A DNA stretch of 64,000 bases, taken from Lutjanus erythropterus (Eukaryota; Chordata; Actinopteri; Lutjaniformes; Lutjanidae). Shown here in pieces: positions 41,640 to 42,149 of the stretch (its first letter is position 1; every line of letters begins with the position of its first letter). Both the position numbers and the translations under genes were made by a program. Location of the stretch: the NCBI GenBank assembly GCA_020091685.1, contig CM034599.1, forward strand, positions 35,355,408-35,419,407, written 5' to 3'. The notes under the pieces are model-generated. The model was given only the letters and a program-made list of their open reading frames with translations, was not told the origin of the DNA and searched no databases.

Positions 41640-41837
41640 GGGGCTTTTTGCCTTTTTTATTTTGATAGTGACAGCTGAAGATATGACAGAAATATGACAG
41701 GAAATGGGATAGAGAGAGAGGGGATGACATGCAGCAAATATGCCGCAGGCAGGAGTTGAACAGGCGGCTGCTGCAGAGGACTGATAGCCTCAGTACATGG
41801 GGTGCGTGCTCTGCCAACTGAGCTATAGGGGCACCCC
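41640..41837 (-). mobile_element. tRNA-derived SINE next to tacr1 exon 4
   Basis: Read on the minus strand it starts GGGGTGCCCCTATAGCTCAG and continues TTGGCAGAGCACGCACCCCA, a tRNA-like head with A box. The body includes GCTGCATGTCATCCCCTCTC and an A-rich tail. Two further copies (60095-60297 and 62080-62258) have the same orientation. It is in the sense direction of tacr1 and begins about 115 nt after exon 4. Confidence 0.85.
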
Positions 41838-41895
41838 AAACCTGTTCAGACCAGGCTGAAATATTGATGAATTTACAGCAAATATATTATCATTA

Positions 41896-41900
<5 letters not shown>

Positions 41901-41938
<38 letters not shown>
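41901..41938. repeat. (GT)n microsatellite; (CA)19 on the tacr1 sense strand
   Basis: 38 bp, ending 14 bases before exon 4 on the plus strand. On the transcript it therefore starts at intron position +15. CA repeats near 5' splice sites are known hnRNP L binding sites in vertebrates. Confidence 0.97.
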
Positions 41939-41940
<2 letters not shown>

Positions 41941-41952
41941 GTGCTGACTAAC

Positions 41953-42149
41953 CTGTCGTTGAGGCAGCAGTAGATGATAGGGTTGTACATGGTGGAGCTC
42001 ATGGCCAGCCACATGATGGCCAGGTAAAACTGCTGGATGAACTGTTCTTCAAGCAAGTCAGGGAAGAACTGGTGCAACAGGAAGTACACATGGTAGGGCA
42101 GCCAGCAGATGGCAAACGTACACACCACCACAATCATCATCTTCACCAC
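41953..42149 (-). CDS. tacr1: tacr1 exon 4: TM6 and TM7
   Basis: This exon encodes TM6, extracellular loop 3 and TM7. It starts VVKMMIVVVCTFAICWLPYH, with the CWLP motif of TM6 that acts as a hinge in class A GPCRs. It ends with MSSTMYNPIIYCCLNDR, containing the NPxxY motif of TM7. FIQQFYLAIMWLAMSS is near-invariant in NK1 receptors; the loop before it (HQFFPDLLEEQ) diverges from mammals. The acceptor reads ccaacag before 42149 and the donor is GTTAGT below 41953. The exon is 197 bp and splits the final Arg codon AG|G. The donor is followed closely by a CA repeat and then a SINE (see findings). Confidence 0.96.

What the first reader, a model, noticed from the sequence alone, without database searches (positions are those of the whole stretch)
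41823..42149. CA tract and SINE-supplied stop codon at the tacr1 exon 4 donor
Seen: on the sense strand the exon 4 donor GTTAGT is followed at +15 by an uninterrupted (CA)19. A SINE in sense orientation begins about 115 nt after the exon, and its tRNA-like head (GGGGTGCCCCTATAG) provides the first in-frame stop. Reading through the donor stays open and adds 42 residues, including a Thr-His run. Known: mammals make a truncated NK1 receptor lacking the exon 5 tail at this junction, and CA repeats near 5' splice sites bind hnRNP L and can change splice choice. Inference: this fish could make a tail-less receptor with altered desensitisation, with isoform level depending on repeat length.
Basis: partly seen in the sequence, partly recalled or inferred. 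Interest (0 to 1): 0.75.

Follow-up and report, generated by a model that had tools for sequence, protein, structure and literature searches.

The report
Neuropeptide receptor splice site beside repeats
In a fish substance-P receptor gene, a CA repeat and an old mobile element sit just after the fourth exon, so a transcript left unspliced there would code for a receptor with a different tail; the layout is real, but it looks like a by-product of common repeats, and nothing here shows that the short receptor is made.

Summary
The gene is tacr1a of a ray-finned fish: 5 exons, 421 residues, minus strand. Intron 4 is phase 2 with donor CAG|GTTAGT. (CA)19 runs from +15 to +52; a tRNA-derived SINE starts at +115. 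Read-through adds 42 residues after R310 (human R311) and stops at TAG in the SINE's box A.

Three points were missed. (1) At this AG|G junction a consensus donor (GTRA) itself encodes a stop; here T at +3 opens the frame. Five tachykinin-receptor-like loci in this genome show both states. (2) CA length sets the frame: only n = 1 mod 3 reaches the SINE stop; other lengths stop before it. The SINE-ended tail is thus allele-dependent. (3) Most sampled SINE copies also carry AATAAA, so the element brings stop plus poly(A) hexamer, like the L2A element in human CD274, but the downstream context here is poor.

Annotated proteins show tail-less receptors in other teleosts, a bird and a snake, so a short isoform is plausible. 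No transcript data were available. An open frame of this length is common (P about 0.1-0.2). My reading: an ordinary intron with two common repeats, possibly allowing a minor tail-less isoform.

The parts
41953..42149 (-). tacr1a exon 4 (65 codons plus AG of the R310 codon; phase-2 exit)
41944..41952 (-). exon 4 donor GTTAGTCAG; T at +3 makes codon +2..+4 TTA (Leu) instead of the stop TRA
   Evidence: U1 duplex -7.9 against -11.8 kcal/mol for the consensus
41901..41938 (-). (AC/CA)19 tract on the sense strand, intron +15 to +52
41823..41954 (-). read-through frame: R310 codon, 42 further residues, stop TAG 41825-41823
41620..41838 (-). tRNA-derived SINE in sense orientation; box A TAGCTCAGTTGG, box B GTTCAACTC; A-rich 3' end
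41656..41661 (-). AATAAA at intron +292 inside the SINE 3' end; downstream region poor in U and GU
35840..41952 (-). intron 4, 6113 bp, phase 2 (last intron between coding exons)
35503..35839 (-). exon 5 coding part (111-residue tail, stop TAG 35505-35503)
44515..44665 (-). exon 3

Best explanation
This is the ordinary last intron of tacr1a, whose first 300 bases hold two common repeats: a CA microsatellite and an old sense-oriented SINE. The normal product is the spliced 421-residue receptor. Because the intron is phase 2 after AG|G, a consensus donor (GTRA) would end any unspliced frame at once; T at +3 removes that stop and the frame runs by chance to box A of the SINE (shown from sequence). 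If intron 4 is sometimes kept, or the transcript is cut at the SINE's AATAAA, a 352-residue receptor without the exon 5 tail would result (inferred, not shown). No NMD by the exon-junction rule would follow, since this is the last intron (inferred). The exact 42-residue tail and the SINE stop are incidental, because one CA unit more or less moves the stop to before the SINE.
For: Layout and frame. Length-dependent frame: of 14 repeat lengths tried in a script (13-26), 5 reach the SINE stop and 9 end at a TAA before it. Open frames of this length are common. CA/TG runs and the SINE are frequent. Same junction in five tachykinin-receptor-like loci of this genome: donor stop in 2 (GTGAGT, GTAAAA); short read-through tails of 17 and 7 residues in 2 (GTACTT, GTGGGT); 42 residues here. 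So loss of the donor stop is not special to this gene. The donor is not crippled: 8 of 9 positions can pair with U1, and its duplex energy (-7.9) is stronger than that of this gene's exon 3 donor (-6.8). The region after the SINE's AATAAA has the lowest G+T content of the six AATAAA in the intron (0.26, others 0.38-0.54).
Against: Of 286 distinct tachykinin-receptor-family proteins listed in three searches, 30 depart from exon 5-like sequence at this junction and 14 of these end exactly at its R or equivalent, so tail-less products may be general in vertebrates and the intron start may be under some selection. One Salarias fasciatus model continues CLNDR-Y(TH)4TQ, which implies a CA tract right at the same donor in another fish.
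Confidence: 0.72

Rival explanations
1. SINE-ended receptor isoform, working like human CD274-L2A: the exon 4 donor is sometimes ignored, the SINE gives the stop codon (box A TAG) and the poly(A) signal (AATAAA), and a tail-less NK1 receptor with slow desensitisation is made.
For: Both signals are common in the family: 25 of 30 fetched copies (window copy included; the 30 best of 40 listed) have TAG at this place and 25 of 30 have AATAAA in the 3' end. The human CD274 case has the same layout: exon 4 splice site omitted, transcript continues into an L2A element in intron 4 that acts as terminal exon and poly(A) signal, 18 new residues, human donor GUAAUA predicted weak (PMC6877088, passages). 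Annotated tail-less tacr1 isoforms: Thunnus maccoyii X2, Astatotilapia calliptera X2, Carassius gibelio X2, Pimephales promelas X3.
Against: Poor downstream element; donor pairs well with U1. SINE stop depends on CA length. By eye, none of the tails printed resembles this one beyond a TH run. No reads.
Confidence: 0.17
2. The CA tract is the functional part: hnRNP L bound at +15 to +52 tunes use of the exon 4 donor, with repeat length setting the ratio of full-length to tail-less receptor.
For: The tract is CA on the sense strand and close to the donor. A second fish tacr1a model implies a CA tract at the same donor. [quoted passage not shown]
Against: CA runs are common (10 CA/TG runs of at least 8 units in 64 kb). 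The direction is not predictable: hnRNP L can prevent truncation (PMC5974433). The genome-wide base rate of donor plus CA could not be obtained (pattern search did not complete). No comparable tract is seen in the 140 nt printed after the junction of the four other receptor loci of this genome.
Confidence: 0.08

Closest known systems
Truncated NK1 receptor of mammals (311 aa, NK1-Tr)
   Same: Same junction; the R corresponds to residue 311; loss of the exon 5 Cys and Ser/Thr residues if intron 4 is kept; produced when the intron between exons 4 and 5 is not removed (PMC4573218, passages)
   Different: The human form has 311 aa, so its stop is inferred to be in the donor; here the frame continues 42 residues. 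No transcript shown here
CD274-L2A (soluble PD-L1) in human
   Same: Read-through of an exon 4 donor into intron 4, short new tail, mobile element giving terminal exon and poly(A) signal (PMC6877088, passages)
   Different: There an L2A LINE, tested by minigene deletion and transcript data; here a tRNA-derived SINE, sequence only, with a microsatellite in the coding path
IL18R1-Short
   Same: Mobile element in an intron gives a poly(A) signal and a receptor lacking its intracellular signalling part (PMC13232192, preprint, abstract and passages)
   Different: LINE2, single-pass receptor, expression shown across species
hnRNP L regulation through CA-rich intronic sequence
   Same: CA tract on the sense strand near a splice site
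   Different: Binding and effect untested here; published effects seen in passages include prevention of truncation and intron retention on depletion

Membership tests
Tail-less NK1 receptor isoform | Coding continues from exon 4 into intron 4 and ends before exon 5 | tested here: met
   Open for 42 residues, TAG 41825-41823; a property of the sequence, not of a transcript
Tail-less NK1 receptor isoform | Ends at the residue equivalent to human R311 | tested here: not met
   R310 is followed by LVSTY..., because the donor is GTTA
Tail-less NK1 receptor isoform | Transcript and protein exist and resist desensitisation | not testable with these tools
   No RNA data held
Mobile-element terminal exon (CD274-L2A kind) | Element in sense orientation just after the exon supplies the stop | tested here: met
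   Box A TAG in frame at (CA)19; only when repeat length = 1 mod 3
Mobile-element terminal exon (CD274-L2A kind) | Element supplies a usable poly(A) site | tested here: inconclusive
   AATAAA present at +292; downstream G+T content low
Mobile-element terminal exon (CD274-L2A kind) | Weak donor | tested here: inconclusive
   T at +3, duplex -7.9 kcal/mol; consensus -11.8, exon 3 donor of the same gene -6.8
Mobile-element terminal exon (CD274-L2A kind) | Chimeric transcript observed | not testable with these tools
   No RNA data held
tRNA-derived SINE | Box A and box B in order, many dispersed copies | tested here: met
   Box A equals the majority of 29 other copies, box B differs from it at one base; 3812 first-look candidates, 40 scored and listed
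tRNA-derived SINE | Head folds as or matches tRNA | tested here: inconclusive
   Full-length Rfam tRNA match at 14.7 bits, below gathering 29, E 2.1; ARAGORN none
tRNA-derived SINE | Target site duplication | tested here: not met
   No exact shared flank of 7 bases or more; not unexpected for an old copy, 8.4% from the majority
CA-repeat/hnRNP L regulated splice site | CA tract on sense strand near the 5' splice site | tested here: met
   +15 to +52
CA-repeat/hnRNP L regulated splice site | hnRNP L binding and change of splicing | not testable with these tools
   Needs cells

The most novel reading that the evidence does not exclude
A length-gated receptor tail: the tail-less NK1 receptor of this fish is really made, and the CA microsatellite acts as a three-way switch. 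Repeat number modulo 3 chooses among three C-termini: a short tail ending ...THTRT, a middle one ending ...HIMIIYLL, and the long SINE-ended one. The SINE supplies both the last stop and the 3' end, so alleles in one population would differ in receptor tail and perhaps desensitisation.
Probability: 0.05. Interest if true: 0.7.

Novelty: new member of a known kind. Interest (0 to 1): 0.3.

Why it matters
If transcripts confirm it, it would be a second route to a tail-less substance-P receptor, using a mobile element where mammals are inferred to use the splice donor itself, and a case where microsatellite length changes protein sequence as well as, perhaps, splicing. The donor-stop rule (a phase-2 intron after AG with a GTRA donor ends the frame at once) gives a simple test of where intron retention can or cannot add a tail. 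As it stands the case is a candidate only.

Tried and rejected
Chance test of the open frame: not unusual. A tRNA gene at the SINE: ARAGORN found none, and Rfam nothing at gathering score in the window. The SINE as the earliest strong poly(A) site: its AATAAA is the first of six in the intron, but the downstream context is the poorest of the six. Search for an annotated protein with the same tail: three protein searches, 120 rows listed of 631, 1872 and 357 hits; by eye none of the listed proteins shares the tail beyond a TH run. Inferring cichlid and damselfish donors from peptide tails (P0132 LSCETFLKDSG, P0185 SVNI): compatible with GTT- and GTC-type donors, but only a guess, not used as evidence. 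Name of the SINE family: not found; no repeat library was on hand, and a fish SINE paper (PMC3292006, passages) describes another family. Reports of a truncated tacr1 in fish: the search listed 12 of 17 papers; in the teleost tachykinin review PMC9800884 the one use of 'truncated' concerns tac4 peptides (passages), and PMC7982876 does not use the word. Papers on SINE plus stop plus poly(A): one search found none holding all five terms; one search listed 10 of 61, none of this gene by title or start of abstract. Genome-wide base rate of donors beside CA tracts: not completed.

Full report
What is there. The window's minus strand carries the 3' half of a tachykinin receptor 1a gene. Exon 4 matches solved substance-P receptors best (best E 1.3e-32). 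The best listed annotated proteins to exons 3-5 are mostly named substance-P receptor or tachykinin receptor 1a of fishes. On a 21-row tree the window peptide falls outside six rows that I labelled tacr1b, four by their record name and two (P0113, P0115) by resemblance; the branch has support 78/88 only, and the window row fills 27% of the columns. It may be near the damselfishes: the peptide groups with Acanthochromis at 94/80, below the tool's mark, and is 95% identical to Stegastes over 116 residues, but several other percomorphs are at 94%. The genome held for the window is 937.6 Mb. Exons 1 and 2 were found on the same contig and strand, and the five exons join in frame to 421 residues.

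The junction. Exon 4 ends CTCAACGACAG and intron 4 starts GTTAGTCAGC; exon 5 starts GTTTCGTGCT. The intron is phase 2: codon R310 is AG|G. The next codon of an unspliced frame is intron bases +2 to +4. With a consensus donor GTAA or GTGA this codon is TAA or TGA, so such a donor itself ends the frame. The human short receptor has 311 residues (PMC4573218, passages), and the fish R corresponds to residue 311 (by the matched ranges). So I infer that the human stop is the donor; I did not read the human DNA. A human paper lists rs1106855 among intron 4 SNPs and, citing earlier work, as a SNP in a stop codon (PMC4278563, passages). In this fish +3 is T, so the codon is TTA and the frame opens. Exons 1, 2 and 3 of the same gene have purine at +3 (GTAAGC, GTGAGT, GTAAAC).

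The same junction elsewhere in this genome. The exon 4 search gave 37 matches; the four best other receptor loci, those that carry the NPIIY..LN junction motif, were read. L010 (86% identity, tacr1b-like by resemblance): GTACTT, 17 more residues. L011 (69%, tacr3-like by resemblance): GTGAGT, immediate stop. L012 (67%, tacr3-like): GTGGGT, 7 more residues. L013/L015 (one locus, tacr2-like): GTAAAA, immediate stop. Counting the window gene, 2 of 5 have the donor stop and 3 of 5 do not. The lower-scoring GPCR hits were not read. Paralog names are by resemblance, not by a tree.

The CA tract and the frame. (AC)19 starts at +15. A CA unit is two bases, so a change of one unit shifts the frame after it. 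For n from 13 to 26, the five lengths 13, 16, 19, 22 and 25 reach the SINE TAG; the other nine stop at TAA 41875 or 41895, before the SINE. Microsatellites of this kind vary readily (general knowledge; no individuals were compared here). So the statement that the SINE supplies the stop holds for this allele and one length class in three.

The SINE. Box A TAGCTCAGTTGG equals the majority of 29 other copies, and box B differs from it at one base. A whole-genome DNA search gave 3812 first-look candidates, of which 40 were scored and listed, the 39 others at 79-83% identity. The 30 best were fetched, so the sample leans towards copies like this one. 25 of 30 have TAG at the place of the stop, and 25 of 30 have AATAAA in the 3' end, the window copy counted in both. 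The copy is 8.4% from the majority, the others 9.6% on average, so it is old and should be shared with related species, which is testable. No exact target site duplication of 7 bases or more was found. The Rfam tRNA model matches the head over its full length but weakly (14.7 bits, gathering 29). The element thus carries a stop in one frame and a poly(A) hexamer about 160 bases on. Here the region after the hexamer is poor in T and G (0.26, the lowest of the six AATAAA in the intron).

Do fishes make a tail-less receptor? Three protein searches listed 120 rows each of 631, 1872 and 357 hits; together 286 distinct proteins, among them NK2- and NK3-type receptors. By one pattern rule, 249 go on into exon 5-like sequence, 7 show no recognisable junction and 30 depart from it. 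Of the 30, 14 end exactly at the R or its equivalent (for example Carassius gibelio isoform X2, Pimephales isoform X3, the snake Candoia isoform X2), 3 end one residue earlier, and 13 have another tail (for example Thunnus X2 KNSRQNI, Astatotilapia X2 LSCETFLKDSG, a cormorant X2 YERDHK in a cluster of 38 members, Acanthochromis SVNI, Salarias Y(TH)4TQSRISILVGTFH). Some are named partial or low quality, some of the 13 look like odd gene models, and the lists were chosen by similarity and, by length, so these counts are no rates. That RefSeq X models usually rest on RNA reads is recalled, not checked. Both Salarias models lack exon 5 and may be artefacts. Still, the Salarias peptide implies a CA tract right at the same donor in another fish.

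How it most likely works. Normal splicing gives the 421-residue receptor. Occasional retention of the last intron, or cleavage within it, would give a 352-residue receptor that loses the exon 5 tail with 19 Ser, 9 Thr and 4 Cys and gains one with 3 Ser, 7 Thr and 7 His. In mammals the loss of this tail affects desensitisation (PMC4573218 and PMC11365428, passages). Steps shown: gene model, frame, stop, repeat-length dependence, SINE traits. Steps inferred: any transcript, any protein, any regulation by hnRNP L. On the last, hnRNP L prevents cryptic last exons at CA-rich introns (PMC5974433) and its depletion gave retained introns in two genes shown (PMC8575775), so the tract could as well protect the full-length message. 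A primary paper on intronic CA elements and hnRNP L was not held.

Comparison. The nearest working parallel is CD274-L2A, where the exon 4 splice site is omitted and an intronic LINE acts as terminal exon and poly(A) signal with 18 new residues (PMC6877088, passages); IL18R1-Short is another (PMC13232192, preprint, abstract and passages). The present case shares the layout and lacks every transcript test. It is filed as a candidate member of that kind, not as a proven one.

Verdict. The points worth keeping are the donor-stop rule, its loss here, and the dependence of the tail on CA length modulo 3.

Noticed in passing
window 7818-8402: A near-perfect (AT)293 array of 585 bp in the same window.
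   Followed up: no
window 14831-15063 and 17304-17520: Two copies of about 220-230 bp at 87.6% identity, direct orientation.
   Followed up: no
window 7651-7759, 10657-10876, 47060-47165, 60945-61210: A dispersed repeat family in both orientations, 70-93% identity between copies.
   Followed up: no
window 60292-60159 and 62242-62118, minus strand: Two further copies of the same SINE family at 77% and 74% identity.
   Followed up: partly
window about 35689, exon 5: The receptor tail reads STVGDDMEH where close relatives such as Stegastes and Maylandia have STVLQSGDD or STILQVGDD: three residues fewer here.
   Followed up: no
L056, exon 1 of tacr1a (G000:C9:35461235-35460853, -): Exon 1 also ends AG|GTAA after an R codon, so its donor too encodes an immediate in-frame stop.
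   Followed up: partly
protein P0231 (Salarias fasciatus): A tacr1a model goes on after the exon 4 junction with Y(TH)4TQ, implying a CA tract directly at the same donor in another fish.
   Followed up: partly
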